A DNA stretch of 39,734 bases, from assembly GCA_902595725.1 (NCBI GenBank), contig CACJRJ010000012.1, positions 1 through 39,734 of the forward strand. The letters are read 5' to 3'. The notes below the pieces were generated by a model. The model worked only from the letters and a program-made list of their open reading frames with translations, had not been told where the DNA came from and ran no database searches. How positions within the stretch are numbered: position 1 is the first letter of the stretch; every line of letters begins with the position of its first letter. Both the position numbers and the translations under genes were made by a program. The stretch comes from an uncultured Pelagibacteraceae bacterium (lineage in GTDB: Bacteria > Pseudomonadota > Alphaproteobacteria > Pelagibacterales > Pelagibacteraceae). Shown here piece by piece: positions 25,391 through 39,734 of the stretch.

Positions 25391-26480
25391 TTGATATTTT
25401 TTTTAATAATTTTGTTGTTAATTTAAAAGAATTCAATTCCAATTGATTTTTCTTAATTAATTTAACAATTTCTTTTTTTATTTTATTTTTTTGTTTGAAA
25501 CATTTTCTAATGCTAAAAACAAGTTTTTTTTCATGAGTTATGATTTCACCTATTATTCTTCTATCTGCAAAATAGTTTAAATATTTATAATCAGACTTAT
25601 AAATTAGATCTTCTCTTTCTGAAAAAAAAATAACAGGTTTTTTTGTTAAAAACGCATAAGTATATGCTGTGCCTGATAAATCAGTAATCATTAAAGATGA
25701 ATTATTATATGTATTTAAATAATTATTACTATCGTCAAATAAAAAAAGTTTATTTTTTTTATTTTTTTTTTTTAAGTTTTGATAAAAAATTTTATTTATA
25801 TCTCTAGGGTGAGGTCTTAAAATAACATAATATTTACTCTTATTTAATATATTAATAATATTATTTAATTTTTTTTTTAATGAGAGGTTTGCAAAAGAAT
25901 CAATACCTGTTGGAGCTATTATAATAGTTTTATTATTAAAGCTTTTTGTTATTGAATTAATTAAGAATGAAAATCTTAAATAACCCGTTTCAAGTAGAAT
26001 TGGCTTTGTGTAATTTTGAAATAAATTTTCAAATACATTGTTAACTTTTTTACAGCTTATAAAAATATAATCGTATATTGAAAGTCTTTTTTCAACTTCT
26101 CTCTCTTTTTTCTTATCCACTAAAGGCGTATCATAAATACTATGATGAATATATATTTTTTTAGAAAATGGAGGAAAAATATCAGAAATATTGTTGGAAA
26201 TAAAAATATCACAAAAAAAAATAAATTTAAGTGACAAGTATGAAATATAAAAATGTTTATCTTTATTTAAATCTTTAAGGCTTTTATGACAATTTATAAT
26301 CGTAAAATTATTTCCAAGATTTTTTGATAGTTTTCTTAGATAAAAATCATGTATTTTTGTTAAATCGTCAACTGGATGAAAAAATAAAATAGTTTTTTTA
26401 TTATTAAATTTAGAAAAAAAAAATTTTAAATTTATTAATAGAATCGAGTAAAAGCTTTTTAAATATTTTTTAATACTCAT
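25383..26480 (-). CDS. CDP-glycerol glycerophosphotransferase-like protein (TagB/TagF family)
   Basis: A 365-residue protein of the Glyphos_transf family. The C-terminal half has the hallmark YVILRPHPRD and LMITDLSGTAYTYAFLTKKPVIFFSE, the donor-site blocks of TagB/TagF enzymes that move glycerol phosphate from CDP-glycerol onto a glycan. The N-terminus has a hydrophobic patch suitable for membrane contact. No CDP-glycerol pathway is clear here, but two cytidylyltransferase domains that may make CMP-linked phosphonates are encoded upstream in the same operon. It could therefore transfer a phosphonate or phosphoalcohol from a CMP-activated donor. It overlaps the sulfotransferase gene upstream by 11 bases. 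The family is firm; the substrate is inference. Confidence 0.83.
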   Translation of the reverse strand: MSIKKYLKSFYSILLINLKFFFSKFNNKKTILFFHPVDDLTKIHDFYLRKLSKNLGNNFTIINCHKSLKDLNKDKHFYISYLSLKFIFFCDIFISNNISDIFPPFSKKIYIHHSIYDTPLVDKKKEREVEKRLSIYDYIFISCKKVNNVFENLFQNYTKPILLETGYLRFSFLINSITKSFNNKTIIIAPTGIDSFANLSLKKKLNNIINILNKSKYYVILRPHPRDINKIFYQNLKKKNKKNKLFLFDDSNNYLNTYNNSSLMITDLSGTAYTYAFLTKKPVIFFSEREDLIYKSDYKYLNYFADRRIIGEIITHEKKLVFSIRKCFKQKNKIKKEIVKLIKKNQLELNSFKLTTKLLKKISND

Positions 26481-27507
26481 ATTTTTTTAATGTTTCGTAT
26501 AAAGTTAATGATTCATCTAACAATATTTTATCAAAAGAACTTTTTTCGATATTTTTATTTTTATTTTTGAAATCTTTAAAATTAATTTTGTTAATAATAT
26601 CTTCATCATTTGGAATAAATTTTTCAAAATATTTTTCTTTTCTCTCAGATAATTGTTCATAACAAATGAAATGAATATTTTTGTTATCTTGAAATTTTAA
26701 TGCATATTTATATACATCTAACCAAATTTTTAACCAATAATTAAGACTGCTAGGATTAATCTCAATGGAACTTTCATTGTCGAATGAGTAATATTTATGA
26801 TTTAATCCAAAATCAAAATGACCAAGTAAATCCATATATTTTAATATAAATTTATTTTCTTTTTGTATTTTTATAAAGTTTATATGTTGTTTATAAAGAG
26901 AGTAAGACTGTTCTAAAGGATTTCTAAAAACTATAAAAAAGTAAGACTCTGGAAAAAAATCTAATAATGATTTTAGTCTTAATATATTGAAATTATTCTT
27001 AGATAGGTATCTTTCTTTTTGATATTTAATTTTAATCAAATTTATTATTTGTTTATAAAAATTAACATCTTTGTCACTTAAATCATGGTTTTTAACATAG
27101 TTATTATGAATATATTTATTTTCTTTTAAGTGCATCCAAATTGGCTCTTCTAGTGCCTCTGGACTATTTAAATCTATTTTTATTCCATCTCGATGTGCTC
27201 TTTCAGTTTTTTCTATTATCTCATTTTTAAAAACTGATCGAAATTTATTCCATATATTTGGTGAAAATATAAATGGCATATCAGAATAAGTAAAAGATGA
27301 AAATTTACCTGTATTATGCAATAAATTTAATAATTGTGTTGTTCCAGATCTTGCAAGACCAGTAATGAAATAATTTTTTTCATGAATAGTTTTTTTTTTT
27401 AAAAAAAAAAATTTTTCAATTTTAAATAATAATTTAATAATATTTCTATTTGATAAAGCTAATTTATGAATTATTTTATCTAGTGAATTATATTTTATTT
27501 CGAGCAA
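26470..27507 (-). CDS. PAPS-type sulfotransferase family protein
   Basis: A 345-residue protein with a sulfotransferase fold. The 5'-phosphosulfate-binding loop is FITGLARSGTTQLLNLL (residues near 47-62), and the 3'-phosphate-binding segment is FFIVFRNPLEQSYSLYKQH, with the conserved Arg and Ser. Enzymes of this family take sulfate from 3'-phosphoadenosine 5'-phosphosulfate (PAPS) to a sugar or lipid alcohol. No ATP sulfurylase is in the window. An APS-kinase-like gene lies in the same operon at 31695-32234. The donor could be PAPS or an analogous 3'-phosphonucleotide; see the findings. It overlaps both neighbours by about a dozen bases. Confidence 0.87.
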   Translation of the reverse strand: MLEIKYNSLDKIIHKLALSNRNIIKLLFKIEKFFFLKKKTIHEKNYFITGLARSGTTQLLNLLHNTGKFSSFTYSDMPFIFSPNIWNKFRSVFKNEIIEKTERAHRDGIKIDLNSPEALEEPIWMHLKENKYIHNNYVKNHDLSDKDVNFYKQIINLIKIKYQKERYLSKNNFNILRLKSLLDFFPESYFFIVFRNPLEQSYSLYKQHINFIKIQKENKFILKYMDLLGHFDFGLNHKYYSFDNESSIEINPSSLNYWLKIWLDVYKYALKFQDNKNIHFICYEQLSERKEKYFEKFIPNDEDIINKINFKDFKNKNKNIEKSSFDKILLDESLTLYETLKKYEY

Positions 27508-27857: not shown

Positions 27858-28063
27858 TTTTTTTTATTTTTATTTTTATTTTTTATTTTTTTAACTATCC
27901 ATTTAAAAGGATAAATTATAATTGATACTATTAATAATATTACCAATATTATGAAACCTAAACCAGTTAATATAGCTCCAATACCGGCTCCTGGACCTAT
28001 GTAAGCTTGAGCAGAAGAAATAAATAAAAAGCTAACAATTAAATATATTATTATTTTTGACAT
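27854..28063 (-). CDS. Small secreted/membrane protein with AYIGPGAG motif
   Basis: A 69-residue protein. A signal peptide of about 20 residues ends at SAQA, just before YIGPGAGIGAILTGLG, then one long transmembrane segment and a lysine/asparagine-rich tail. The YIGPGAG motif right after the signal cleavage site is a recognisable feature of small proteins found near envelope-glycan genes, but its role is unknown. It overlaps the arylsulfotransferase-like gene upstream by 13 bases and the next small gene by four. Confidence 0.7.
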   Translation of the reverse strand: MSKIIIYLIVSFLFISSAQAYIGPGAGIGAILTGLGFIILVILLIVSIIIYPFKWIVKKIKNKNKNKKN

Positions 28064-29388
28064 TCTTGTTCTATAAAATCAAATTTTTTAAACTCCTCTT
28101 CTGAAATATATCTAGACCAGTTAATTAATGAATTCCAAATAAATTCCCACCTTAAGTTGCCCTCACTATCTCCTCTTAATATTCTACCATGATCCTCTTC
28201 CTCTACATATATATCATCATTATTAAGAATTCTATATAACGACCCTGTTCTGCTATTAATATTATGGTTAATAAATAATTTTTCATATTTTTTTTCACTT
28301 GTTTCATTATCAAAATTATAAAAGTATAAATTATTAGTGTTTGGGGATTCATCCCATCCTAATGTTACATTATTATCAAATATAGCAATTGTATTTTGAT
28401 CTACTAAGTCAATATCATGTTGAAATCTCCAAGGACCTTGCTTATACCAAATGACTTTATTTGTTGATGGTCTATAAAGTATTACAAGAGATAAACTTCT
28501 TATTGATAAAAAAACATCACCTTTTAACCAATAATTACTGTCAAAATTTACAGGCTCTATATCATTAAGATGAATTGGATCATCCCCATAATAAACATTT
28601 AAAACTAACTCAAATAGATTATTTTCAATTAATATTTCTGTAACAGATTTTTCGAGTAATATAGTGCCGTCTAAACTCACTTTTGCTATTCCATCATCAT
28701 GATATAAATTGTGAATACTTTTATACTTTCCTGGAATTTCTAAAATTGGTACCCATATATTATTTTCTGAGTCTAAATTTATACTATGATGAAATCTTTT
28801 ATCTATTTGCCAAACTAAATTTGAACATCTATCTATTTTAATCAACGGAGAAGATGAATGGGTTATAATAGAGCCATTACTTAATAACACTGGATGATAA
28901 AATAAATATCTTTTTCTATTTGAGTCCATCTCTAAATTCTTTTGAGATCTATCAAAATTTGATATTTTATTTATCTCATCTATATCTGGATCCCACTCAT
29001 ACAAAATTTTATCATTCTTAATATCATACAAATGTACTAAATTTTTTCCTTTATCTTTAAAGTATCTTGAAAATATTATGTAACCTTCTAAATGATTTGG
29101 ATTACTTGAAAATATTGTTAAACCTTTTTTCTTCTTTTTATGTTTTGTATATGTAAACTCGTCTCCACCAAAACCTGAACAAGCTTCAATATTATTAAAT
29201 AAATAGCACTTTATAATTTTTATAGAATTACTTGGTATTTTTGCAAAAAAAACAATTGCTGACTCAGTTTTTCCAAAAGCTCCACCTGGATTATTATTTG
29301 ATGTAGAATGTATAACAATATTCCCAAAAATTGAAAATGAAACTAAGATTACTAAAAAAATAAAAAAAAACTTTTTTAAATACTTCAT
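28051..29388 (-). CDS. Arylsulfotransferase-like (ASST) periplasmic beta-propeller protein
   Basis: A 445-residue protein. One N-terminal hydrophobic segment (about residues 5-27) is a signal or membrane anchor. The rest is a beta-propeller with repeated blocks of the Arylsulfotran family: FHHSINLDSENNIWVP, PIHLNDIEPVNF, RFQHDIDLVDQNTIAIFDN and a terminal EGNLRWEFIW. Bacterial ASST enzymes transfer sulfate between phenolic esters without PAPS in the periplasm through a histidine. Several histidines are conserved in the visible blocks (HHS, HLND, QHD), but which would be catalytic is not certain. It starts one base after the PhyH gene stop, within the phosphonate operon. Confidence 0.8.
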   Translation of the reverse strand: MKYLKKFFFIFLVILVSFSIFGNIVIHSTSNNNPGGAFGKTESAIVFFAKIPSNSIKIIKCYLFNNIEACSGFGGDEFTYTKHKKKKKGLTIFSSNPNHLEGYIIFSRYFKDKGKNLVHLYDIKNDKILYEWDPDIDEINKISNFDRSQKNLEMDSNRKRYLFYHPVLLSNGSIITHSSSPLIKIDRCSNLVWQIDKRFHHSINLDSENNIWVPILEIPGKYKSIHNLYHDDGIAKVSLDGTILLEKSVTEILIENNLFELVLNVYYGDDPIHLNDIEPVNFDSNYWLKGDVFLSIRSLSLVILYRPSTNKVIWYKQGPWRFQHDIDLVDQNTIAIFDNNVTLGWDESPNTNNLYFYNFDNETSEKKYEKLFINHNINSRTGSLYRILNNDDIYVEEEDHGRILRGDSEGNLRWEFIWNSLINWSRYISEEEFKKFDFIEQECQK

Positions 29389-29389
29389 A

Positions 29390-30136
29390 TTATATCTTCC
29401 AATTATATTTAATATTTTTTTTTCTTAAATTATTGGGTGGATAATTTTTAATTTTATCTTTAAAATATTTTCTAATTTTACTTCCATATTTAATTTCATT
29501 ATAAGTTAAAAATAACATTCTTCTTGATTTGTTTGAAAGGTTTGAATCTGATCTATGTGCCGTCTTGTCATTAAAAATAACTATATCACCAGGTAAACTA
29601 ATTAGTTTTTTCCATTTAAGCTTTCTAACTTTATTTAGTGGTATTGCTTTCTCAAATTTTGCTAACTCACCCATTATATGAGACTTGGGAGATATTTCTA
29701 AACATCCATTTTTTTTATTTGATTTATCTATAGTAACTGCAACAGTAATAAATTCTTTTATTTTATACATATTATTCCAAATAGTTAAATCTTGATGAGG
29801 CTCAAAACCAACAGCACCTGGACTTTTAATATTGGCTTTGTCCTTAAAGATATTAACTTTAGATTTAATGATTTGATAAATTATACTTTTTAATTTTTTA
29901 TCTAGAACTTTTTTTATTTTCTTATTATTTTCATAGAAATTTTCAATTCTATTTAGGATTAGTTTTTTATTAATTTTTGATCTAGTATAATATAAATAAA
30001 TATTTTTATTATCAGCACTTAATATTTTATTTAGCTCACTAGAAATAGTTTCAATGTCTTTTTTAGAAAAAAATTTTTTTATTACTAAAAATCCATTGTC
30101 ATTATAAGAATTTATATGAAAATTTGATAATTTCAT
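29390..30136 (-). CDS. PhyH-type Fe(II)/2-oxoglutarate oxygenase
   Basis: A 248-residue phytanoyl-CoA dioxygenase family protein. The iron facial triad appears as His-x-Asp in FEPHQDLTIW and the distal His in DKTAHRSDSN. The 2-oxoglutarate Arg is in SNKSRRMLFLTYNE. GCLEISPKSH also fits the family. These enzymes hydroxylate unactivated carbons in the cytosol; the family includes PhnY*, which hydroxylates 2-aminoethylphosphonate next to phosphorus. Between a radical SAM enzyme and an ASST-like gene in a phosphonate operon, it probably hydroxylates the phosphonate or its glycoconjugate. Spacing from the radical SAM gene is 28 bases. The family is confident and the substrate is inferred. Confidence 0.87.
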   Translation of the reverse strand: MKLSNFHINSYNDNGFLVIKKFFSKKDIETISSELNKILSADNKNIYLYYTRSKINKKLILNRIENFYENNKKIKKVLDKKLKSIIYQIIKSKVNIFKDKANIKSPGAVGFEPHQDLTIWNNMYKIKEFITVAVTIDKSNKKNGCLEISPKSHIMGELAKFEKAIPLNKVRKLKWKKLISLPGDIVIFNDKTAHRSDSNLSNKSRRMLFLTYNEIKYGSKIRKYFKDKIKNYPPNNLRKKNIKYNWKI

Positions 30137-30164
30137 TTAGGGTATTATTAATATTTTAGAGCTA

Positions 30165-31688
30165 TTAAGTTTGTTTTACAAGTGCAGAAGCTTCTGCATT
30201 TTTTCCGTACTTGTAATGAAACCTTTTTGGATCGTTATCTCTCAACATTAAATTGGCTTTAACATTGGCTTCGTTTACAAATTTTTCAAACTCATCAGGC
30301 CCAGAAAATCCATCAACTTTTACTAGTGAAGACCTAAAAAGCATATCGTCTAAAGATCTACCTCCCCACCAAAGATTTTCTTTTATTACTTTTCTATAAA
30401 TTGGAGTTCCAGGTAGGGGACTTAATATTGCAAAAGAAAAGCTATCTGCTCCAGAATTCATTGCAAAATCTATAGTTTTATTAATTTCTTCATATGTCTC
30501 TCCTGGATATCCCACAATCCAAAAAGTATGTACTAACATTCCAGCTTTTTTTGCATTTTCAATTGAAGGATAAATTGTTTCAAGCGGTAATCTTTTATGG
30601 ATTATATCATCTAATACTCTTTGTACACCACTTTCACAAGCAAGAGTAATTTGATAACATCCAGATTCATACATTCTTTTATACATTTCGTCTTGCTTTT
30701 TAAAATGATAATTTACTTTTGTGCCATTAGGTGTACACCAAGGTAAACCAATTTTTTCCAATCTATCACATAGCGAATACAAGTTTTTTTTATTTACAGT
30801 AATTGTATCGTCATCAAATTGAATTTCTCCAATTTTAAAATCTCTTACGTCATTAGAAATTTCATCCATTATATGATCTGTTGATCTCCATCTAGTATTT
30901 TGACCCCACATGCTTGGAGTAGAACAAAAAGTACATTTTTCAGGGCAGCCTCTAGAACACATAACACTTAGAACTCTTTTTGATCTAGACTTTGCTGAGT
31001 GAAAAGCTCCTATCTTAAAATATGCCTCCATATCCACAAGATGTCTTGCTGGTCTTGGAAGTAAATTTAGATCGTGAACTCTATGATTTGAATTTATATG
31101 ATATTTTCCTTTAGATATCCTTTTTACCAATCCAGGAACTTTCATTATCTCATTAACATCATTATTAATAATAGCTTCAACTATTTTTAAAAATGAAAAT
31201 TCACCTTCACCTGCCATGCCATAATCAAAGTGATCATTTTCAAGATCAGTTATAATATTTTCAAGTTTAATTTCTTTATCAATTTTAAAATATTTATAAT
31301 CTTGTACTGCACTTGATATATGATTGCCTCCCAAAATAATCTGAATTTTTTTATTTACTTTTTTAATTACTTTTGCAATTTGATGAGCCGACTCTAATAA
31401 ATTTGAAAATAAAACTGAAATTGCAACAATATCAGGTGAAAAATTTGATACAACTTTTGCAATATTTTCATCATCTTGCCCTATCATTACAATATTATTT
31501 TTTTCATCAATAACTTTTCTTTTTTCCCAGCCATCCAAAGCTGCATCATAAATTTTTACTTCATGCCCATTTTTTTCTAATATTGGAGCTATAAGCATTA
31601 ATCCTAATGATGGTTGAATTCTATTCACTCCATCAGAAATTCCCTTTAAATTTGGAGTTATCAATAATACTTTTGCTTTTTTTTTCAT
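30165..31688 (-). CDS. B12-binding-domain radical SAM enzyme, candidate phosphonate methyltransferase
   Basis: A 507-residue class B radical SAM protein. Residues 1-190 form a cobalamin-binding-like domain (VLLITPNLKG, PSLGLMLIAPILEKNGHEV, DIVAISVLFSN, IQIILGGNH, YGMAGEGE). The radical SAM core has the cluster motif Cys248-x3-Cys252-x2-Cys255 in CPEKCTFC, then IGEIQFDDDT and LACESGVQ. Relatives include Fom3 and PhpK, which methylate phosphonate or phosphinate intermediates, and HpnR-type enzymes. In an operon with PEP mutase and two cytidylyltransferase domains, C-methylation of a CMP-linked phosphonate is the leading hypothesis. The cobalamin it needs could come through the BtuB locus at 22316-24436. 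Six bases separate it from the kinase gene. An unrelated rearrangement reaction is also possible. Confidence 0.9.
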   Translation of the reverse strand: MKKKAKVLLITPNLKGISDGVNRIQPSLGLMLIAPILEKNGHEVKIYDAALDGWEKRKVIDEKNNIVMIGQDDENIAKVVSNFSPDIVAISVLFSNLLESAHQIAKVIKKVNKKIQIILGGNHISSAVQDYKYFKIDKEIKLENIITDLENDHFDYGMAGEGEFSFLKIVEAIINNDVNEIMKVPGLVKRISKGKYHINSNHRVHDLNLLPRPARHLVDMEAYFKIGAFHSAKSRSKRVLSVMCSRGCPEKCTFCSTPSMWGQNTRWRSTDHIMDEISNDVRDFKIGEIQFDDDTITVNKKNLYSLCDRLEKIGLPWCTPNGTKVNYHFKKQDEMYKRMYESGCYQITLACESGVQRVLDDIIHKRLPLETIYPSIENAKKAGMLVHTFWIVGYPGETYEEINKTIDFAMNSGADSFSFAILSPLPGTPIYRKVIKENLWWGGRSLDDMLFRSSLVKVDGFSGPDEFEKFVNEANVKANLMLRDNDPKRFHYKYGKNAEASALVKQT

Positions 31689-31694
31689 GTTTAT

Positions 31695-32234
31695 TTAGTT
31701 AGTAACCTTTTTGATTATATCATTATAATATTGGTTTGCTAAAGTTTTTAAATTTTTTTGCATATCATTTTTTATAATAAAGTTTGGTTTTTTTGGATAT
31801 TCTGGCTTTATATCAATACCTAAAATATATTTCTTTTTTTTATAAGTCTTTTTTTTACCAAGTTCTATTATTTTTCTAATATCTGCATCAATTAATGTAA
31901 CCAAAAAATTTTCAATCTTAGACTTGTAAATTTTTCTAGCAGCATGATTTAACCCAACCACTGAATACAATACATTAATTTTTTTTTTAGTTAAAAAATT
32001 TAACAATTCACTAAACTTATATGAGTTTTTAATCCTATCACTTTTTTTATATCCATAATATCCATACAATTTTCTTAGGTCATCTCCACTTAAATTTATT
32101 GTTGTTCCAAATTTTTTATCAATTCTTTTATGAACTAATTTTAATATTGAAGATTTTCCTGAGCCTGAAAAGCCCTCAACCCAAAAGACTATTCCTTGTT
32201 TTTTATCTAATTTTATTTTTTTAAATTTTTGCAT
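31695..32234 (-). CDS. Adenylylsulfate-kinase-like P-loop kinase (CysC/Cj1415 type)
   Basis: A 179-residue kinase. The Walker A motif is at residues 21-28 (GFSGSGKS), SGDDLRKLYG matches the DGDxxR block of APS kinases, SDRIKNSYKF the following helix, and YILGIDIKPEYPKKPNFII the C-terminal GIDxxYExP block. The usual ISPFRxxR block is replaced by VVGLNHAARKI, so the substrate may differ from APS. A related APS-kinase homologue in Campylobacter (Cj1415) phosphorylates the 3' hydroxyl of cytidine diphosphoramidate. Here the gene overlaps a cytidylyltransferase by 22 bases, which favours a 3'-kinase acting on a CMP-linked compound. Ordinary APS kinase activity cannot be excluded. Confidence 0.83.
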   Translation of the reverse strand: MQKFKKIKLDKKQGIVFWVEGFSGSGKSSILKLVHKRIDKKFGTTINLSGDDLRKLYGYYGYKKSDRIKNSYKFSELLNFLTKKKINVLYSVVGLNHAARKIYKSKIENFLVTLIDADIRKIIELGKKKTYKKKKYILGIDIKPEYPKKPNFIIKNDMQKNLKTLANQYYNDIIKKVTN

Positions 32235-32602
32235 GCTTTTTTTCTAATTAAAGTACTACTTATACCCATTGTTCTTTTAAAAATTTTAATTTTTGTTTTT
32301 GAAATTTTATTTTTATTATCATTTCCATGTATTAAGTAATCTATTTTTAAACTTCTCAAGAATTTATCTGTTATAAAAAAATTGCTCGGTACTACTTTAA
32401 AAACATTTTTAAATGATTGAAGAATTTCTCTTCTATGTTTGAATTGTATTTCTGGTATATAGCCTTTATATTTTTTAATTTCCTTGTCTATGGTTAGAGC
32501 AATAATAACATTTCCAAGTTTTGCCGCTCTATTGATTAATCTCACATGACCGTGATGAATAATTGTTGCTGACATATCTAACAAAATATTTTTATTCTTC
32601 AT
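32213..32602 (-). CDS. Stand-alone cytidylyltransferase (TagD/PntC-like)
   Basis: A 129-residue nucleotidyltransferase. The HxGH motif is at residues 16-19 (HHGH) and the ISSTLIR motif at 114-120, as in CTP:phosphate-alcohol cytidylyltransferases. GNDN and the FKHRREILQSF block are also present. These enzymes couple a phosphorylated or phosphonate substrate to CMP with release of pyrophosphate. Its position right after the aminotransferase suggests activation of 2-aminoethylphosphonate or its derivative. A second cytidylyltransferase domain is fused to the PEP mutase in this operon. It overlaps the aminotransferase gene by one base. CDP-glycerol formation is another possibility, given the TagF-like gene downstream. 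Confidence 0.87.
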   Translation of the reverse strand: MKNKNILLDMSATIIHHGHVRLINRAAKLGNVIIALTIDKEIKKYKGYIPEIQFKHRREILQSFKNVFKVVPSNFFITDKFLRSLKIDYLIHGNDNKNKISKTKIKIFKRTMGISSTLIRKKACKNLKK

Positions 32603-33579
32603 TAATCCAATAGATCTAAGATATTTCCTTTGGCGTTTTTACCTAAATGAGCTTCACCAATATGACAAACAACACTTCCTCCAATATTATTTCTGGGAGA
32701 GTATAGAATAACTTTTTTACTTTTAGATTTAACTATTTTATTTACATGAGTACATAAATTAGGTTGATTTTCAATTGGAATAGTTAAAAAATTTTCCATT
32801 TTTTTCATAAACCTTTTTTTATTAACTAATACAGAATGCTTGATTTCAGAATGCTTTTCTAAAACTTTTTCCAGTGAGTATAAAATTTGGTATGGACCTG
32901 TCATTTTTTTATCAATATGATTTTGTAAATTTAAATAGAAACTTGGAATATAATTTTCAAATTTTCTATTAAAGCAAATAAAACCTGCTCCTGTTAAACC
33001 AAATAAACCTTTGCAAGAGCTGAAAGATATAACATCGGCAAGTTCATGATCTTTTTCTAAACCTATAGAGCCGGTGGCATCTAACATTAATTTGGATTTA
33101 CATTTTTTTGCAAATTTGCTTAAGTTTTTAATTGGAATTTTTAACCCACAACTAGTTTCTGTTGGACATGCAACTATCCAATCATATTTTTTTTGAAAAG
33201 AACTTAAATCTTTCCAATTGATTTGATCTACTTTTTTAATATATCCAAATAACTTTTTATGTTGATTAGATATGCTATATAATCTCTGAGAATAATATCC
33301 TGTATCAATAATTAAAATTTTCCCAAATAGGTAATTGGCCATCATAATTTCTATTGCTAAACTTCCAGACCCTTGAAAACGAGAAATATTTAGAAATCCA
33401 CCTGCTATTTTTTTAATTTTTGACAAAACTTTCTTTTCAGTTTTTAAATATTCTTCATCACCACGACCAAAACATGGTTTAATATTTGAAAGATTGGTGC
33501 TTATTAAGCTAGCTGGTCCAGCAGTAAAAATTATTTTTTTATTATTTTCTTTTTTTATTAAACTTTTAATATTTTGCAT
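32602..33579 (-). CDS. Class V aminotransferase, 2-aminoethylphosphonate transaminase-like
   Basis: A 325-residue PLP-dependent aminotransferase. The PLP lysine is Lys190 in SFSSCKGLFGLTGAGF; FTAGPASL is the N-terminal block, GSGSLAIE binds phosphate, and LMLDATGSIG carries the PLP-ring Asp. In a phosphonate operon it most likely converts phosphonoacetaldehyde from the upstream decarboxylase into 2-aminoethylphosphonate. It is shorter than typical AEP transaminases (about 360-370 residues), so a related reaction is possible. Its start overlaps the decarboxylase gene by 14 bases, and it is followed at once by a cytidylyltransferase, an order seen in known AEP-CMP pathways. The family is firm, and the substrate is supported by context. 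Confidence 0.85.
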   Translation of the reverse strand: MQNIKSLIKKENNKKIIFTAGPASLISTNLSNIKPCFGRGDEEYLKTEKKVLSKIKKIAGGFLNISRFQGSGSLAIEIMMANYLFGKILIIDTGYYSQRLYSISNQHKKLFGYIKKVDQINWKDLSSFQKKYDWIVACPTETSCGLKIPIKNLSKFAKKCKSKLMLDATGSIGLEKDHELADVISFSSCKGLFGLTGAGFICFNRKFENYIPSFYLNLQNHIDKKMTGPYQILYSLEKVLEKHSEIKHSVLVNKKRFMKKMENFLTIPIENQPNLCTHVNKIVKSKSKKVILYSPRNNIGGSVVCHIGEAHLGKNAKGNILDLLD

Positions 33580-34714
33580 TTTTTTTTAATATTTTTTGAA
33601 ACTCTTTTTTTCTTAATATAAATTTCTCTTTTGGTCTTGGTAAGTTACTAGTAATACCTGCCTGACTTAAAATTTCAATAAAAACACTTTTATTTAATTT
33701 TAAGGCTTTATCCATATTTTTTTCAAATTTTTTTAAAGTAGAAGATTTAAAATAAAAATCATATCCAAAACCTTTGCTAATTTGTCTATAATTAAGCTTT
33801 ATTGAGTTAATTTTTTGTCCACCAACAGAATCATGGACGCCATTATTAATTAGTATATGAATGAAATTTTTCATCATGGCTGAGTTTTGCATTCCAGATG
33901 TGTGCATTAATAGAGAACCATCTCCATCTATACAAATTATTTTTTTTTTTTTTAAATTTTTTGCAATTCCTGCTGAAACAGATACTGCGTGTCCCATGCC
34001 ACCAACCATTAAAAAGTCTTTTGATACATTTTCATTTCTTAAAAATCTTAAATGATAAAGCTCCCTAGAGGTATATCCTGTCGTAGAGATTATTAAGGAA
34101 TTATTTTTTGATTTTTCAATAATTTTTTCAATAATTTTTTTGCGAAATGGATAAGATGTTTTTTTGGAAAATATTTTTTTTTCTTTATTTTTTTTAAAAG
34201 TACCCTTTTTTACTATTATAGCTACAGGTTTTTGAAGAGAAATTGATAGCTGTTTACTTTGAGTAATAATTTTTTTAAAATTTTTTGTATCTTTATTAAT
34301 TACTTTGTAAGGGATATCAATCAATTTAAGTTGCTTTAATGTAATTTTGCCTTGGTATAAATGTTGAGGCTCATCGTCAACTTGTTTATTTTTTTTTATA
34401 ATTTCACCTCTCCACCCAATTAAGAGAAGCATTGGGATGCCATAAACTTCTTTATTAGCAATAGAATTTAATGGATTAATTGCATTACCTAAACCAGAAT
34501 TTTGCATATATACAAGTGCTGGATTTCCAGAAGATAAATAGTGTCCAGCTGCCAATGCTATTGCTAGTCCTTCGTTTCCAACAGATAAATGCTCCTCTTT
34601 TTTTTTTTTATCCAATAAATAAATAAAATTTTTAAGAAGCGAGTCAGGGACTCCTGTAAAAAAATTAATATTATTTTTTTTTAAAAAATTATAAAATTTT
34701 TTTGAGTCTAACAT
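33566..34714 (-). CDS. ppd: Phosphonopyruvate decarboxylase
   Basis: A 382-residue thiamine diphosphate enzyme. FFTGVPDSLLKNF at the N-terminus is the phosphonopyruvate-decarboxylase signature, SVGNEGLAIALAAG carries the ThDP-activating Glu, and the cofactor motif runs from GDG at 264-266 (Asp265) to Asn290-Asn291. It converts phosphonopyruvate to phosphonoacetaldehyde, the irreversible step that drives C-P bond formation forward. It starts two bases after the PEP mutase stop and overlaps the aminotransferase gene, as in most phosphonate operons. Length matches the family. Confidence 0.94.
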   Translation of the reverse strand: MLDSKKFYNFLKKNNINFFTGVPDSLLKNFIYLLDKKKKEEHLSVGNEGLAIALAAGHYLSSGNPALVYMQNSGLGNAINPLNSIANKEVYGIPMLLLIGWRGEIIKKNKQVDDEPQHLYQGKITLKQLKLIDIPYKVINKDTKNFKKIITQSKQLSISLQKPVAIIVKKGTFKKNKEKKIFSKKTSYPFRKKIIEKIIEKSKNNSLIISTTGYTSRELYHLRFLRNENVSKDFLMVGGMGHAVSVSAGIAKNLKKKKIICIDGDGSLLMHTSGMQNSAMMKNFIHILINNGVHDSVGGQKINSIKLNYRQISKGFGYDFYFKSSTLKKFEKNMDKALKLNKSVFIEILSQAGITSNLPRPKEKFILRKKEFQKILKKNAKY

Positions 34715-34716
34715 CT

Positions 34717-36018
34717 TTAGTTTGTGCCTGGAATTAAATCCATCATATCTTTAATTGAGGTTAATTTATCCTCAATTTCTTTAGATCTTTCATGTGTTAA
34801 AATTGACTCTGCAGTTTTTACCATTGCAGGATATGCTGCTCTAAAAAGATGATTTGCATAAATTACAACATTAAATCCTTGCTGAATTAATTCTGACTCT
34901 TTTACAGAGCTATAGGTGCTTGGTACACAAACTAATGGAATATTGTTAAATTCTTTTTTAAATTTTTTTGAAAAATCAAAAATTTCATTTGGCTGATCTT
35001 TTTTACTATGTATCATAATTGCATCACTTCCAGAGTCTACATAAGATTTTGCTCTTAAAATTGCATCATCTATTCCTTTTCCTAAAATAAAACTTTCTAT
35101 TCTTGCAATAATCATAAAATCTGAATTCTGTTGATTAATTTTTGCTTTTCTTATTTTTTCTGAGAATGTAGCTATATCTTCTTGCGACTGACTAGAAGTA
35201 TCGTTTAATAATGAATTTTTTTTTAAACCTGTTTTATCTTCCATGATTACAGCTGAAATTCCAAGTCTTTCAATTGTTTTAATATTTAAATTTAAATGCT
35301 CAATTTTTCCTCCTGTGTCTATATCCATTATTAGAGGTTTTGATGTCACTTCAAATATATTGTTTATATTCTCTAATCTTTTTGAAATATCTACTACTTC
35401 AATATCAGGCTTACCCATCAGAGAGGCATCTGTTAAAGAGCTTGACCAAAAACCATCAAAATATTTTTCTCTTCCATTAATATTTGCTGTTGCATTCTCT
35501 GCAATTAATGCAGAGATAGGACTGTGAGTTTCTATAATTCTTGTAATATCTTTATTTTCTATTGATCTTTTTAAAGTTTTTATTCTTTGGTCGGGAGAAA
35601 TTCCAACTTTTTTTGACTTATTTGAAATTGCTTCAGAAGAAATGCCTTTTGTATAAGGCACTTCAATTAGTTTACCACCATATTTATTTAAAGTTTCAAT
35701 AACATTTTTTCTCAAAACAGCTTGTTTACCTGTTGTCCAATCGTCTCCGTGAATAACAAATTCAGGCTTAAGTTTTTGAATTGTTAAAGAATCGTCCCAT
35801 TCAGATTGAGGGACAACATCAGTAACTCCAGAAATATTTTGGATTATTAGTTTTCTTTGTTCATAATTTAGAATTGGCAACTTTTTATGTGTTGCTACAG
35901 CTTTGTCAGTCAACAATCCAATAATCACATCTCCATATTTTTTTCCTTCATTTATAAGATTAATATGTCCATGATGAATGTTATCTGCTGTTAAGGATAT
36001 ATAAACTTTTTTTTTCAT
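34717..36018 (-). CDS. pepM: Cytidylyltransferase-PEP phosphomutase fusion
   Basis: A 433-residue two-domain protein. Residues 1-140 form a nucleotidyltransferase domain with HxGH at 15-18 (HHGH) and GISSEAIS near its end. Residues 150-433 form the PEP mutase domain: Asp232 and Asp234 in IMDIDTGG for magnesium, and the diagnostic EDKTGLKKNS at 260-269. PEP mutase rearranges phosphoenolpyruvate into phosphonopyruvate, the entry step of nearly all phosphonate biosynthesis. The same domain order is known in Fom1 of fosfomycin biosynthesis, where the N-terminal domain activates a phosphonate with CMP. It is followed by the decarboxylase gene and preceded by an ABC flippase gene 15 bases upstream. 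The EDKxxxxxNS motif separates it from isocitrate-lyase relatives. Confidence 0.95.
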   Translation of the reverse strand: MKKKVYISLTADNIHHGHINLINEGKKYGDVIIGLLTDKAVATHKKLPILNYEQRKLIIQNISGVTDVVPQSEWDDSLTIQKLKPEFVIHGDDWTTGKQAVLRKNVIETLNKYGGKLIEVPYTKGISSEAISNKSKKVGISPDQRIKTLKRSIENKDITRIIETHSPISALIAENATANINGREKYFDGFWSSSLTDASLMGKPDIEVVDISKRLENINNIFEVTSKPLIMDIDTGGKIEHLNLNIKTIERLGISAVIMEDKTGLKKNSLLNDTSSQSQEDIATFSEKIRKAKINQQNSDFMIIARIESFILGKGIDDAILRAKSYVDSGSDAIMIHSKKDQPNEIFDFSKKFKKEFNNIPLVCVPSTYSSVKESELIQQGFNVVIYANHLFRAAYPAMVKTAESILTHERSKEIEDKLTSIKDMMDLIPGTN

Positions 36019-36033
36019 TAATAATTAATTTGT

Positions 36034-37806
36034 TTAAATAATTCCACTATTTATTAAATCTTTATACTTACCATTGTCAATAATAGATCCATTTTTTAGA
36101 ACAAAAATATTATCACAATTTTTAACTGAGTTTAGTCTGTGGGTGATTATTATAATTGTTTTATTTTTACTTAATTTGTCAATATCATCCATGATCTTAC
36201 TTTCATTTTCTTCATCCAAAGAACTTGTAGCTTCGTCAAAAATTATTATTTCAGGATCAGTATAAAGTGCTCTAGCTATTCCAATTCTTTGTCTTTGTCC
36301 ACCTGAAATTCTTATACCATTATTTCCAATTAAAGTTTCCTCTTTATTTTGAAGAGAATTTACAAAAGTATAAAGTTGAGATTTTTTAAGACTATCTACT
36401 AATTTATCATTTTCTATTTCTTCTTCATTTATTCCATAAGCAATATTATTTTTAATTGTATCGTCTAATAAATATATATTTTGTGCAACATAACCTAGTT
36501 TTTTTTGCCATCCTGCCTTATTTGAATTTATATCTATATCATCACAAAATATTTTTCCCTTTTGTGGAGTGTGCAAACAAGTAATCAAATCTAATAATGT
36601 ACTTTTTCCTGAACCTGAAGGACCTATTATTCCAACTTTGGAATTTTTTATTATTTCTAAGTTTATGTTTTCTAAAACTGATTTATTTTTTTCATAACTA
36701 AAATGAATATCTTTTAAAATGATTTTATTTCTAAGTTTTGGAAAATCTTTAATTTTTTCAAATTTATTAGATACATAATTCTTTTTTTCTACATTGATAA
36801 TTTCGTTGTATATAAACTCAAAAGAAAACATAAGATTATTTATTCCTGATATTGATTGAGTTATTATATTATATGATGGCATCATTCTTACTATTGAGAC
36901 AATATATAAAGTTAAAATTGGTAAAATAATTTCAAAACTTCCGTTAACTCTTATTAAAAAAAAACATAACAACATTATTCCAGTTATACTTACAGTTTCT
37001 AAAAATAGTCTTGGTAATGATTGGATAAATCCGGATAAAGCTCTATTACGTTCTTCTTCAGTCATAACAGTAGTAAATTTTTTTAATGAAAACAAATGTT
37101 TGTTTAAAATTTTAAGTTCTTTAATAGAGCCAAATGTCTCTTGTAAATACACAAGTGTGCTGCCCGATGCTTTATGAATTTTTTTTCCTGCTTTTCCCAT
37201 TATATTTTTAGTAAGCAAAACAAAAATTAAACTTGATATAAATAAAATTGATATTACAGAAATTGCTGAAGCTGGATTTGCTAATAAAAGCAAAGTAGAA
37301 ATTAAAATTAATAATATTAATTCTTTTAATATTGTTATAATTTTAAAAATTATTTCAATAGAATTATTACAATCTAAAACGACATTTCTAGCTAGCGTTG
37401 CTGGGTTTCTTAATAAAAAAAAACTATAAGGAGAATATATATAGTTACTATAAATTTTATTTTTAAGGTCCTGTCTTAATTTTAATCTTAGTTTATTTTG
37501 AAAATAAGACAAAAAACCTAAATAAATATTTTTGAGCAAAAAAATAATAAATAAAGCAATTCCTATTAGAATTTCAATTTCTAGATCAAAGCTATAAATG
37601 AAACTTTCTATATTTAATAATTCTATATAATTTGAGATTAATTCATTCCCAGTAAGAGCTAAAATAAATATTGGAATAGAACTTATTCCAATTAACTCAA
37701 ATATATTGGCTCCAAGTAATAAAAAATAATAAAGATATAAATAAAAATAATTTTTTTTATCAATTATTCTGTTAATTTTATTTATGCTGATACCTGATAG
37801 TTTCAT
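36034..37806 (-). CDS. ABC transporter, PglK/MsbA-type flippase
   Basis: A 590-residue half-transporter with fused domains. Residues 1-330 hold about six transmembrane segments; residues 360-590 form the ATPase. Walker A GPSGSGKST is at 395-403, the signature ISGGQRQRIG starts at 500, Walker B Asp524-Glu525 lies in FDEATSSLD, and the H-loop is IIITHRLN. As a homodimer it should flip a lipid-linked glycan or a lipid across the inner membrane. Its position between NeuBC-like genes and the phosphonate genes suggests it moves the phosphonate- or nonulosonate-bearing glycan. It lies six bases after the NeuC-like gene. Confidence 0.92.
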   Translation of the reverse strand: MKLSGISINKINRIIDKKNYFYLYLYYFLLLGANIFELIGISSIPIFILALTGNELISNYIELLNIESFIYSFDLEIEILIGIALFIIFLLKNIYLGFLSYFQNKLRLKLRQDLKNKIYSNYIYSPYSFFLLRNPATLARNVVLDCNNSIEIIFKIITILKELILLILISTLLLLANPASAISVISILFISSLIFVLLTKNIMGKAGKKIHKASGSTLVYLQETFGSIKELKILNKHLFSLKKFTTVMTEEERNRALSGFIQSLPRLFLETVSITGIMLLCFFLIRVNGSFEIILPILTLYIVSIVRMMPSYNIITQSISGINNLMFSFEFIYNEIINVEKKNYVSNKFEKIKDFPKLRNKIILKDIHFSYEKNKSVLENINLEIIKNSKVGIIGPSGSGKSTLLDLITCLHTPQKGKIFCDDIDINSNKAGWQKKLGYVAQNIYLLDDTIKNNIAYGINEEEIENDKLVDSLKKSQLYTFVNSLQNKEETLIGNNGIRISGGQRQRIGIARALYTDPEIIIFDEATSSLDEENESKIMDDIDKLSKNKTIIIITHRLNSVKNCDNIFVLKNGSIIDNGKYKDLINSGII

Positions 37807-37812
37807 TTAATT

Positions 37813-38940
37813 TTATTCTTTAAGTTTTTTTTGAACTGGTGTACTCCATATTTTTTTTAATTTCAGAATATATGCAATTTTTTTTGCTGAGTTACCATGT
37901 CCAAAAAAAAATTTTTTTTCAAATTTTTTATCACTAATTTTTGAAATAGATGAAAGAATTGAAGAAATATTAAATTTAACATTAATAATTGATTTAATAT
38001 TTTTAACACGTTCATTTTGTCTAGATCCTAAATTAATAGTTGGAATTCCATATACAGGAGCTTCTATAATTCCAGCGCTAGAATTACCAATAATAAAATT
38101 TGAATTTTTTAATAATGATAAAAAATATTCAAATCTCATTGATTTAAGCATTTTAAAATTTTCATTCTTTAAAATTTTAGATTTGTAAACTTTTAGAATA
38201 TCTAAATTTCCAGGATCATTATTTGGAAAAATTACTACAAATTTTTTACCTGATTTAATGCAAGCATCTAAAAGAATATTTGTAAAATATTTAGTTTTTT
38301 TTAATTCTGTTGTAACAGGATGAAAAATTAAAATTGAATATTTTTCAAAAAAAATTGAATATCTTTTTTTTACTTCATTTATTTTTGGGAGAAATTGCTT
38401 TCTCATTATATCTATATCAGGACTACCACAGACAAATATAGAATTTGGGTTTTCACCAAGATTTTTAATAAGTCTTTTTTTTGCAATACTATTTGAAACT
38501 AGATGCAAGTGTGAAAGTTTTGAAATTGAATGTCTTATATGCTCGTCTATTGTTCCAGTTAATTCTCCACCTTCGATATGCATTGTTAAATAATTATTTA
38601 GTGATGCCGATATTGCCCCAGCAAGTGCTTCTACTCTATCCCCATGAACAATAACCAGATTAGGTTTATTTAATCTCAAGAATTTATTAAATCCATATAT
38701 TGTATTTGCTAATACTTTGTCTTGGCTTTCTATTTTAGTGTAGTTTTTAAATTTATATAAAGTGTTTTTTGGGAAGTTCTTTTTAAGTTCATTATATGTA
38801 TAGCCATATTTTCTATCTAAATGCATTCCGGTAACAAAAATTTTTATATTAAAATTTAGTCTTAAAAGTTTTTGTATAACACTTTTAATTTTACTAAAAT
38901 CTGCTCTAGTACCAGTTATAAAAACAATTTTTTTTTTCAG
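37813..38940 (-). CDS. neuC: UDP-GlcNAc 2-epimerase (NeuC-like), apparent CTG start
   Basis: A 375-residue protein of the hydrolysing UDP-GlcNAc 2-epimerase family. The N-terminal motif FITGTRADFSKIKS is encoded upstream of the first ATG (38826), so the gene must start near 38940. No ATG, GTG or TTG fits there; a CTG at 38940-38938 does, and it overlaps the NeuB stop as CTGA. VIVHGDRVEALAGA, HIEGGELTGTIDEHIRH and GNSSAGIIEAPVYGIPTINLGSRQ complete the family pattern. It releases UDP and gives a 2-epimerised amino sugar for NeuB to condense with PEP. The alternative of an ATG start at 38826 would remove the nucleotide-sugar loop. Confidence 0.9.
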   Translation of the reverse strand: MKKKIVFITGTRADFSKIKSVIQKLLRLNFNIKIFVTGMHLDRKYGYTYNELKKNFPKNTLYKFKNYTKIESQDKVLANTIYGFNKFLRLNKPNLVIVHGDRVEALAGAISASLNNYLTMHIEGGELTGTIDEHIRHSISKLSHLHLVSNSIAKKRLIKNLGENPNSIFVCGSPDIDIMRKQFLPKINEVKKRYSIFFEKYSILIFHPVTTELKKTKYFTNILLDACIKSGKKFVVIFPNNDPGNLDILKVYKSKILKNENFKMLKSMRFEYFLSLLKNSNFIIGNSSAGIIEAPVYGIPTINLGSRQNERVKNIKSIINVKFNISSILSSISKISDKKFEKKFFFGHGNSAKKIAYILKLKKIWSTPVQKKLKE

Positions 38941-39734
38941 ATATGTATTTTTTTAATTTGAGTATTTTGTAAAATATCTTTTTTTACTTTTTTTCCTAAA
39001 AGCTTATAGTACATTTCTGCACTAAAGTCACCAGTTCCAGGTCTTTTTACCCAAATATTGTCTCTTGTTAATTTTTCACCTTTAAATATATTTCTTAAAG
39101 CTATCACTGATGCAAAGGCAAATTTTGCAACACTTACTTCTTCTTTCAAAATATTTTTTTTATCTTTTAATGTTAAAAAAATATTTTTTGAATCAATAAT
39201 CAAATTTTTTAAGCCTTTTTCGTCTAATGAACTTGAAATATCAGGGCCTTTTCTTTTTTTTGTATCAACAAAATGTTTTTCAACTAAGTTAACTCCTAAA
39301 GCTATAGCTGCATAAGAAGTTAAATTATCTTCTGAATGATCTGAAAGTCCAATTAAAATATTAGGGAAATTTTTTTTAAGTTCTAAAATAAAATTTAATC
39401 TTGCATGTGAATAGTTAGATGGGTAAATATTTGTGCAATGATTAATGACAAATTTAACTTTATTTTTTTTTAGAATTGATATAGTTTTTTTTATTTGTTT
39501 CATATTGTTCATACCAGTACTTAAAATTATTGGTTTTTTTGATTTAGAAACATATTCAATTAGAGGCAAATTATTGCATTCGCCCGAACCTATTTTAAAG
39601 GCTTTTACTTTAAGCTTATTTAGTCTATCAACAGCTGCTCTTGAAAATGGTGTGCTCAAATACTCCATTCCAAGGCTTTCTGTGTATTTTTTAATTTTAA
39701 ATTCTTGTTCGTAAGAAAAAGAGCATTTTTTAAT
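38937..39734 (-). CDS. neuB: Nonulosonate (sialic/legionaminic acid) synthase, NeuB-like, 5' end cut off
   Basis: About 265 residues are visible; the frame stays open to the right edge, so roughly the first 80-90 residues lie outside the window. TPFSRAAVDRL, FKIGSGECNNLPLI, ILSTGMN, GLSDHS and VEKHFVDTKKRKGPD are typical of NeuB. The C-terminal SAF domain (ALRNIFKGEKLTRDNIWVKR) binds substrate in the partner subunit. NeuB condenses PEP with an N-acetylated six-carbon sugar to give a nine-carbon acid. The stop overlaps the NeuC-like start by four bases. Which acid is made cannot be told, because the activating CMP-transferase is not in view. Confidence 0.93.
   Translation of the reverse strand: MKKCSFSYEQEFKIKKYTESLGMEYLSTPFSRAAVDRLNKLKVKAFKIGSGECNNLPLIEYVSKSKKPIILSTGMNNMKQIKKTISILKKNKVKFVINHCTNIYPSNYSHARLNFILELKKNFPNILIGLSDHSEDNLTSYAAIALGVNLVEKHFVDTKKRKGPDISSSLDEKGLKNLIIDSKNIFLTLKDKKNILKEEVSVAKFAFASVIALRNIFKGEKLTRDNIWVKRPGTGDFSAEMYYKLLGKKVKKDILQNTQIKKIHI

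What the first reader, a model, noticed from the sequence alone, without database searches (positions are those of the whole stretch)
29390..36018. Phosphonate operon combining PEP mutase, nucleotide activation, B12-radical SAM and PhyH tailoring
Seen: a tight run of PEP mutase with cytidylyltransferase, phosphonopyruvate decarboxylase, aminotransferase, stand-alone cytidylyltransferase, APS-kinase-like kinase, B12-radical SAM enzyme and PhyH oxygenase, all on the minus strand with overlaps or gaps of at most 28 bases. Known: PEP mutase and Ppd make phosphonoacetaldehyde; Fom1, Fom3 and PntC show CMP activation and radical methylation in other pathways. Inferred: the product is 2-aminoethylphosphonate that is C-methylated and/or hydroxylated while CMP-linked, then attached to a surface glycan. 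I know of no described pathway with this exact set of enzymes.
Basis: partly seen in the sequence, partly recalled or inferred. Interest (0 to 1): 0.87.

Follow-up and report, generated by a model that had tools for sequence, protein, structure and literature searches.

The report
SAR11 operon making tailored surface phosphonates
A very common kind of ocean bacterium carries a compact gene set that appears to build an unusual carbon-phosphorus molecule, modify it with a vitamin B12 enzyme, and load it onto a sulfate-style carrier so that it can be attached to the cell's surface sugars.

Summary
It continues one base further into an ASST-family gene and lies among sialic-acid-type glycan genes. 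PEP mutase and Ppd pass curated cut-offs; an aminotransferase and a second cytidylyltransferase mark a 2-aminoethylphosphonate (AEP) branch.

Two points change the reading. First, the "APS kinase" is probably not one: no CysN or Sat ATP sulfurylase was found in the genome. Relatives lie within 8 kb of PEP mutase in 20 of 52 SAR11 phosphonate loci (12 from its own side of the kinase tree), and others lie in C. jejuni-type phosphoramidate gene sets, where the equivalent enzyme helps make a cytidine 3'-phosphate donor. I infer 3'-phosphorylation of CMP-phosphonate into a PAPS-like donor. Second, the B12 radical-SAM enzyme is not clearly Fom3-like; its best curated model is a P-methyltransferase, far below cut-off. 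It tracks AEP clusters and a BtuB-like receptor (9 of 14 rSAM genomes; 6 of 101 relatives).

Methylation site, hydroxylation and transferase are unproven. No paper I found describes this set. New variant of a known kind.

The parts
38937..39734 (-). NeuB-family synthase (runs off the window): nonulosonic-acid glycan context
   Evidence: Pfam NeuB 201 bits
37813..38826 (-). UDP-GlcNAc 2-epimerase, NeuC type
   Evidence: TIGR03568 327 bits, cut-off 236
36034..37806 (-). ABC exporter, best model PglK, 15 bases upstream of PEPM
   Evidence: NF050066 302 bits, below cut-off 1000; gap
34717..36018 (-). Fused cytidylyltransferase + PEP mutase, Fom1-like
   Evidence: TIGR02320 over cut-off; best PDB hit 5x3d, E 8e-42, CyT part only (that 5x3d is the Fom1 CyT domain is recalled); EDKTGLKKNS
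33566..34714 (-). Phosphonopyruvate decarboxylase (Ppd)
   Evidence: TIGR03297 389 bits, over cut-off
32602..33579 (-). Class-V aminotransferase, presumed AEP-forming
   Evidence: Aminotran_5; PhnW-AepZ 64 bits, below cut-off 361; SSCKG
32213..32602 (-). Stand-alone cytidylyltransferase (CyT2), presumed AEP-specific
   Evidence: CTP_transf_like; HHGH and RTMGISST; in 11 of 12 AT loci
31695..32234 (-). APS-kinase-fold kinase, proposed CMP-phosphonate 3'-kinase
   Evidence: Pfam APS_kinase 54 bits, over its cut-off 21; all listed NCBIfam APS-kinase models below cut-off, best PRK05541 91 of 127; kin of kinases in phosphonate and phosphoramidate clusters; no CysN or Sat in the genome
30165..31688 (-). 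B12-binding radical SAM enzyme, proposed methylase of the activated phosphonate
   Evidence: Pfam B12-binding + Radical_SAM; NF038361 246 bits, cut-off 575; CPEKCTFC
29390..30136 (-). PhyH-family Fe(II)/2-oxoglutarate oxygenase
   Evidence: PhyH 88 bits; methylphosphonate hydroxylase model 96 bits, cut-off 500
28051..29388 (-). ASST-family (Arylsulfotran_2) protein, 1 base downstream of PhyH
   Evidence: PF14269 129 bits; gap
26470..27507 (-). Sulfotransfer_3 family protein, candidate phosphonyl transferase
   Evidence: PF13469 46 bits, cut-off 27; RSGTT and RNPLEQSYS
25383..26480 (-). CDP-glycerol glycerophosphotransferase-like protein, rival candidate transferase
   Evidence: PF04464 47 bits; same ORF cluster in rSAM loci L010, L011, L014, L026, L055 and in four loci without it, L049, L051, L074, L084; the L014 member has no Pfam match of its own
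22316..24253 (-). BtuB-like TonB-dependent receptor, presumed cobalamin uptake
   Evidence: TIGR01779 174 bits, best model but below cut-off 600; BtuB structures matched end to end, though the top PDB hit by E-value is colicin I receptor over residues 37-157; tracks the rSAM
21604..22095 (-). DUF6580 protein next to the receptor
   Evidence: PF20221 104 bits; in 5 of 14 rSAM loci (window included), none of the other 46

Best explanation
A SAR11 phosphonate-glycan operon. Supported by family and context: PEP is turned into phosphonopyruvate (PEP mutase), then phosphonoacetaldehyde (Ppd), then AEP (aminotransferase), which a cytidylyltransferase loads as CMP-AEP. Inferred: the B12 radical-SAM enzyme methylates and the PhyH oxygenase hydroxylates the phosphonate, probably while CMP-bound as with Fom3. 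Inferred, and the main new claim: the APS-kinase-like enzyme phosphorylates the cytidine 3'-OH, giving 3'-phospho-CMP-phosphonate, a counterpart of PAPS and of the C. jejuni donor CDP-phosphoramidate 3'-phosphate. A transferase (Sulfotransfer_3 or CDP-glycerol type, both encoded downstream) then moves the phosphonyl group to a nonulosonic-acid-containing surface glycan. A BtuB-like receptor in the same region would supply cobalamin.
For: Curated models for PEPM and Ppd. AT linked to CyT2 and rarely with the HEP dehydrogenase (11/12 vs 4/40; 1/12 vs 32/40). Of 23 kinase places in genomes with PEPM, 18 are within 10 kb of it; 10 of the 15 on the window's side of the kinase tree (counted). These clusters are of AEP, HEP and HEPD type, whose common element would be the activated phosphonate. 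CysN over cut-off in 0 of 10 kinase genomes and in 3 of 3 CysNC controls; Sat in 1 of the 13. SAR11 loci L117 and L120 and the Azospirillum plasmid AZO_p6 hold glutamine-kinase-like, amidotransferase, NTP-transferase and kinase genes together; PMC11800397 (passages) says Cj1415-1418 make CDP-phosphoramidate 3'-phosphate. The window kinase falls with the SAR11 phosphoramidate kinases, apart from two SAR11 CysC rows (branch 99/99). Sulfotransferase-like proteins near the kinase in L066, L069, L079, L108, L109, L116 and L113 keep R(D/N)PxxxxxS. B12 receptor in 9 of 14 rSAM genomes (eight at 60% identity or more, one at 38%) against 6 of 101 relatives, own genome included.
Against: No activity was measured. 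35 of 56 genomes with a kinase homologue have no PEPM match, and of 17 kinase loci fetched away from PEPM, 12 showed neither a phosphoramidate set nor PEPM, Ppd or Pdh. Eight of the 20 kinases near PEPM belong to a HEPD-linked clade nearer CysC. Only 4 of 12 AEP-type loci have the kinase. Kinase-LicD exclusion (0 of 7) has p 0.035, uncorrected among 14 pairs, and 0.18 when only the 12 window-side kinases are counted. Kinase-sulfotransferase linkage is not significant (p 0.066; 0.074). Two further members of that sulfotransferase group, L059 and L065, lack the motif, and the window's own sulfotransferase is not similar to the group by BLAST. The Azospirillum and Smac51 kinases fall on the CysC/HEPD side. 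Cj1415 itself could not be fetched. G337 has both kinase and Sat. The genome is 84% complete; CysD was not searched.
Confidence: 0.5

Rival explanations
1. Classical Pnt-type pathway: CMP-AEP is the final donor, moved by a CDP-glycerol-type (or elsewhere LicD-like) transferase. The kinase acts elsewhere, on the glycan acceptor or on the free phosphonate.
For: 8 of 12 AEP-type loci lack the kinase and 3 of 12 have LicD. The window and five other rSAM loci have the CDP-glycerol-type transferase. 35 of 56 kinase genomes have no PEPM match.
Against: The kinase gene overlaps CyT2 by 22 bases, and its family recurs with different phosphonate sets and with phosphoramidate sets, whose shared part would be the cytidylyl carrier.
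Confidence: 0.28
2. The kinase is a real APS kinase; PAPS feeds the sulfotransferase, so the glycan carries sulfate as well as phosphonate.
For: Pfam APS_kinase 54 bits, cut-off 21; sulfotransferase and ASST-family genes nearby.
Against: No CysN over cut-off and no Sat in this genome or in the single-contig, 99% complete kinase genome G192; every listed NCBIfam APS-kinase model is below cut-off; the tree separates it from SAR11 CysC.
Confidence: 0.07
3. The radical-SAM enzyme is a P-methylase (PhpK/Sden_1168 type) and the product is a phosphinate with a C-P-C bond.
For: Best model NF038361, 246 bits; PhpK 123 bits. An rSAM with the same best model (318 bits) is next to PEPM-Ppd-AT-NTP transferase outside SAR11 (L097).
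Against: Cut-offs 575 and 600 are missed by far, and HpnJ and ApyD models score above PhpK. No gene that would make a P-H phosphinate was recognised in the run. L097 shows the family with an ordinary-looking AEP set.
Confidence: 0.15

Closest known systems
C. jejuni O-methyl phosphoramidate (MeOPN) capsule pathway, Cj1415-Cj1418
   Same: Cytidylyl activation of a phosphorus group and transfer to surface polysaccharide (passages); APS-kinase-like genes sit in SAR11 and Azospirillum gene sets of that type
   Different: Here the group is a C-P phosphonate from PEP mutase, not an N-P amide from glutamine kinase; neither a glutamine kinase nor an amidotransferase was recognised in the run
Phosphonyl tailoring (Pnt) AEP-glycan pathway (Rice 2019, PMC6697681; passages and part 1 of 3 of Results read)
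   Same: PEPM with fused CyT, Ppd, aminotransferase, CMP-AEP logic, glycan genes
   Different: A PF01467-type CyT2 in place of a LicC-like PntC, no LicD within 8 kb, plus kinase, B12-rSAM and PhyH; 'kinase' and 'radical SAM' do not occur in the main text
Fosfomycin Fom1/Fom3 (PMC8992657, passages)
   Same: Fused CyT-PEPM close to Fom1 in its CyT part; a B12-rSAM in the same gene set; Fom3 acts on a CMP-phosphonate
   Different: Aminotransferase in place of alcohol dehydrogenase; the rSAM is of another lineage than those from HEP-like contexts
SAR11 and other marine phosphonate clusters (Acker 2022, PMC8931226, passages; PMC9381506, passages)
   Same: pepM in SAR11 beside glycan assembly genes; proposed phosphonoglycoproteins; neighbourhoods with transferases and choline kinase
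   Different: 'kinase' and 'radical SAM' do not occur in the Acker main text; PMC9381506 names choline kinase, and its one 'radical SAM' is in a reference title

Membership tests
PEP mutase phosphonate pathway | PEPM model and EDK(X)5NS motif | tested here: met
   381 bits, cut-off 320; EDKTGLKKNS
PEP mutase phosphonate pathway | Adjacent phosphonopyruvate decarboxylase | tested here: met
   389 bits, cut-off 313, 2-base gap
AEP (Pnt-type) branch | AEP aminotransferase | tested here: inconclusive
   PhnW-AepZ is the best model but 64 bits, cut-off 361; linkage to CyT2 supports it
AEP (Pnt-type) branch | LicD-type transferase | tested here: not met
   No LicD-profile hit within 8 kb of PEPM in the window
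APS kinase (CysC) | APS_kinase domain (Pfam) | tested here: met
   PF01583 54 bits, cut-off 21; shared by the whole fold family
APS kinase (CysC) | Curated NCBIfam APS kinase models | tested here: not met
   TIGR00455 64 bits, cut-off 139; PRK05541 91, cut-off 127
APS kinase (CysC) | Source of APS (ATP sulfurylase) in the genome | tested here: not met
   No CysN over cut-off, no PF01747; genome 84% complete, CysD not searched
Cytidine diphosphoramidate kinase (Cj1415 type) | Falls with kinases of phosphoramidate gene sets | tested here: inconclusive
   It does with SAR11 L117 and L120 (full sets) and L122 (contig end, only the NTP transferase seen); Azospirillum and Smac51 kinases fall on the other side
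Cytidine diphosphoramidate kinase (Cj1415 type) | Phosphorylates the cytidine 3'-OH | not testable with these tools
   Needs an enzyme assay; Cj1415 sequence not obtained
Fom3 C-methylase | B12-binding + radical SAM beside CMP-phosphonate genes | tested here: met
Fom3 C-methylase | Groups with Fom3 sequences | not tested
   No Fom3 sequence was at hand; rSAMs from HEP-like contexts are another lineage
PhpK/Sden_1168 P-methylase | NF038361 or TIGR04479 cut-off | tested here: not met
   246 of 575 and 123 of 600 bits
PAPS-type sulfotransferase fold (26470-27507) | Sulfotransferase domain with 5' and 3' nucleotide motifs | tested here: met
   46 bits, cut-off 27; RSGTT, RNPLEQSYS; the role of the motifs is recalled

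The most novel reading that the evidence does not exclude
SAR11 bacteria use a PAPS-like chemistry for phosphorus groups: phosphonates (AEP, HEP and perhaps others) and phosphoramidates are cytidylylated, then 3'-phosphorylated by an APS-kinase-derived enzyme, and transferred to surface glycans by enzymes of sulfotransferase fold. In the window the cargo is a B12-radical-methylated, perhaps hydroxylated AEP, and the region brings its own B12 receptor.
Probability: 0.37. Interest if true: 0.87.

Novelty: new variant of a known kind. Interest (0 to 1): 0.73.

Why it matters
SAR11 may be a leading source of marine phosphonates: PMC8931226 (passages) finds the trait in 18% of SAR11 cells of its data set and estimates that SAR11 could account for 75% of the sunlit-ocean budget, while saying that production had not been confirmed in SAR11 (2022). 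A defined operon with predicted intermediates (CMP-AEP, 3'-phospho-CMP-AEP, a methylated AEP) turns an open question, which phosphonate SAR11 makes and how it is attached, into direct enzyme assays. The kinase logic would join phosphonate, phosphoramidate and sulfate decoration under one activation scheme, and the link between the rSAM and a BtuB-like receptor would give a reason for B12 need in some SAR11.

Tried and rejected
True APS kinase: set aside for lack of CysN and Sat and by the tree. CysN-model matches below cut-off in the ten kinase genomes I take for other GTPases, which was not checked.

Fom3 membership: not testable, no Fom3 sequence was obtained. The stand-ins are imperfect. 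L075 has rSAM, fused PEPM, Ppd and Fe-alcohol dehydrogenase; L100 has rSAM, dehydrogenase, a 171-residue CyT-only ORF and a cut Ppd (no PEPM seen); L098 has only the dehydrogenase-like ORF. Branches are long.

Sulfotransferase as the only transferase: not upheld (p 0.066). The CDP-glycerol-type transferase is the one shared with rSAM loci, but it also occurs in four loci without the rSAM.

LicD exclusion as support for the kinase: weak, and not significant for the window-side kinases (p 0.18).

Conserved-residue hunt in the kinase gave columns that differ from CysC, but against only three SAR11 CysC rows, one partial, so I draw nothing from it.

L010 is labelled Parcubacteria; its rSAM is 70% identical to the window's, and its genome shows only an unfused 35% PEPM match, so it may be mis-binned. 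It was kept in the count of 14.

Rows dropped before counts: L063 (same place as L030), L027 (same as L055), the partial CysC row L126 in the trees, and rSAM paralogues L075 and L082 where orthologues are meant.

Structure prediction was not used: most useful homologues came from the fetch from genomes, which is not on the stated list of allowed sources.


Full report
The observation. The seven ORFs lie at 29390-36018 on the minus strand with spacings between -22 and +28 bases. Pfam and NCBIfam identify a CyT-PEP mutase fusion, Ppd, a class-V aminotransferase, a cytidylyltransferase, an APS_kinase-fold kinase, a B12-binding radical SAM enzyme and a PhyH oxygenase. PEPM and Ppd pass their NCBIfam equivalog cut-offs; the other five pass Pfam cut-offs for broad domains, but no specific NCBIfam equivalog among the models listed. 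The run continues. Upstream: an exporter 15 bases away, then a NeuC-type epimerase (over cut-off) and NeuB. Downstream: an ASST-family ORF 1 base away and, after 193 bases, a small ORF, a Sulfotransfer_3 protein, a CDP-glycerol-type transferase and another ORF, each overlapping the next.

The organism. The window is contig C12 of a 1.08 Mb, 43-contig genome that is 84% complete. Three of the four named records with a close rSAM (64-86% identity) are Pelagibacteraceae genomes; the fourth is labelled Parcubacteria. So this is SAR11.

Conservation. rSAM orthologues (E 1e-100 or better) occur in 9 of 397 family genomes. The fused PEPM occurs in 49 of 397, including 7 of those 9 (7/9 against 42/388, Fisher p 8.7e-6). 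With G064 and L009-L012 there are 14 rSAM genomes. The fused PEPM was found in 11 of them; not in G268 (55% complete), G494 (63% complete) or the genome of L010. PEPM, Ppd, AT, CyT2, kinase and rSAM occur together in L014, L009 and L055/L027.

Branch point. I compared 52 SAR11 loci with PEPM, scoring genes within 8 kb of it. The aminotransferase is in 12, the Fe-alcohol dehydrogenase (HEP branch; Pfam for one member) in 33, and only one has both (p 1.2e-5). CyT2 is in 11 of 12 AT loci and 4 of 40 others (p 2.5e-7). The six rSAM-orthologue loci among the 52 (window, L009, L014, L030, L032, L055) all have AT, against 6 of 46 others (p 4.5e-5). So the rSAM belongs to the AEP branch by association. 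Relatedness among these loci was not corrected for.

The kinase. Homologues (E 1e-8 or better) occur in 56 of 397 genomes at 58 places, five of them in long CysNC-size frames. 21 of the 56 genomes also have PEPM and 35 do not; PEPM without kinase is seen in 28 (p 8e-8). Of 23 places in genomes with PEPM, 18 are within 10 kb of it (its binomial p of 8e-27 assumes a naive 2% chance). In the 52 loci the kinase is in 20: 12 on the window's side of the kinase tree, in AEP- and HEP-type loci, and 8 in a separate clade that goes with a HEPD-like oxygenase (one member tested: PDB 3rzz, PhpD, E 6e-75; tree). Of 17 kinase loci fetched away from PEPM (L108-L124), two hold a full phosphoramidate-type set (L117, L120), one at a contig end holds its NTP transferase (L122), two have other phosphonate genes (L108 Ppd, L109 dehydrogenase) and 12 show neither, one of them with a HEPD-like neighbour (L124).

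Why not an APS kinase. In none of the ten kinase genomes tested was CysN over cut-off, while the three genomes with CysNC, chosen as controls, all were; Sat was found in one of the 13, G337. In L117 the kinase lies with a glutamine-kinase-like protein (PRK05849 779 bits, cut-off 501), a class-I amidotransferase whose best model is gamma-glutamyl-CDP-amidate hydrolase (117 bits, cut-off 250) and an NTP transferase; L120 has the same domains by Pfam; both kinases pass the PRK05541 cut-off (137 and 142, cut-off 127). That is the make-up of C. jejuni Cj1415-1418, which make CDP-phosphoramidate 3'-phosphate (PMC11800397, passages). Azospirillum lipoferum AZO_p6 has such a set, with the kinase as the end of an 846-residue protein and a sulfotransferase-domain gene close by; the Smac51 plasmid is similar. 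The tree puts window, HEP and SAR11 phosphoramidate kinases on one side of a 99/99 branch and two CysC rows plus the HEPD-linked kinases on the other. With Azospirillum and Smac51 added the split stays (98/96), but those two fall on the CysC/HEPD side, so 3'-activation may not map onto one clade.

Transferase. Sulfotransferase-like proteins sit next to the kinase or within three genes of it in L066, L069, L079, L108, L109 and L116. Of the four scanned (L108, L116, L066, L069), one passes the Pfam cut-off of 27 (28.6; the others 24.8, 18.5, 14.9). All six, and a seventh protein beside the kinase in L113, keep R(D/N)PxxxxxS; two other members of the group, L059 and L065, do not. The window's own Sulfotransfer_3 protein has RSGTT and RNPLEQSYS but does not match the others by BLAST. 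That these motifs bind the 5' and 3' phosphates of PAPS is recalled. The CDP-glycerol-type transferase is in the window and in rSAM loci L010, L011, L014, L026 and L055, and in four loci without the rSAM. I cannot choose between the two.

The radical SAM enzyme. Best model NF038361 at 246 bits, cut-off 575; three relatives behave alike (235-253 bits). Outside SAR11, L097 has rSAM, PEPM, Ppd, AT and NTP transferase in one run; its PEPM matches without the CyT part. rSAMs from HEP-like contexts (L075, L098, L100) group apart, on long branches. In 398 phylum genomes no match passed the NF038361 cut-off; the best had 535 bits. That Sden_1168 itself was shown to P-methylate is recalled; no paper on it was found. 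The site stays open; I favour carbon because no phosphinate-making gene was recognised in the run.

Cobalamin. The TonB receptor at 22316-24253 has the B12 receptor as its best model (174 bits, cut-off 600) and matches BtuB structures end to end, though colicin I receptor ranks first over a short stretch. It is found in 9 of 14 rSAM genomes and 6 of 101 relatives, own genome included; without the own genome 9/14 against 5/100, p 5e-7. The relatives are other species, unevenly related, so the p is a guide. Among 60 loci it lies in the same fetched stretch as the rSAM in 5 of 14 and in 0 of 46 others.

Novelty. In the searches for kinase, radical SAM or cytidylyltransferase with phosphonate terms no listed title, abstract start or passage I read describes this set; they cover open-licence papers only, and the closest works were read in passages or in part.

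Noticed in passing
L117:7978-12105 and L120:99-4291: SAR11 genomes with what looks like a complete phosphoramidate (MeOPN-type) gene set; one search with SAR11 and phosphoramidate terms listed no paper on it.
   Followed up: partly
L059, L064, L081, L086, L087, L089, L090, L094: SAR11 loci with a PhpD/HEPD-like oxygenase beside a divergent kinase clade (nearer CysC), some with an asparagine-synthase-like gene: maybe hydroxymethylphosphonate chemistry.
   Followed up: partly
L075:24-6637: SAR11 locus with B12-rSAM, CyT-PEPM, Ppd and Fe-alcohol dehydrogenase (one other ORF in between): resembles an early fosfomycin gene set.
   Followed up: partly
L114:4809-10308: Kinase homologue beside a different rSAM paralogue, with the same BtuB-like receptor + DUF6580 pair as in the window.
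   Followed up: no
L030, L032, L053, L058, L067, L070, L080, L081, L082, L085: CDP-alcohol phosphatidyltransferase family genes near PEPM (10 of 52 loci), linked with LicD (5 of 7 LicD loci); possible phosphonolipid route.
   Followed up: no
window 28051-29388: ASST-family protein with an apparent N-terminal membrane segment, 1 base after PhyH; no BLAST match in the other loci compared.
   Followed up: no
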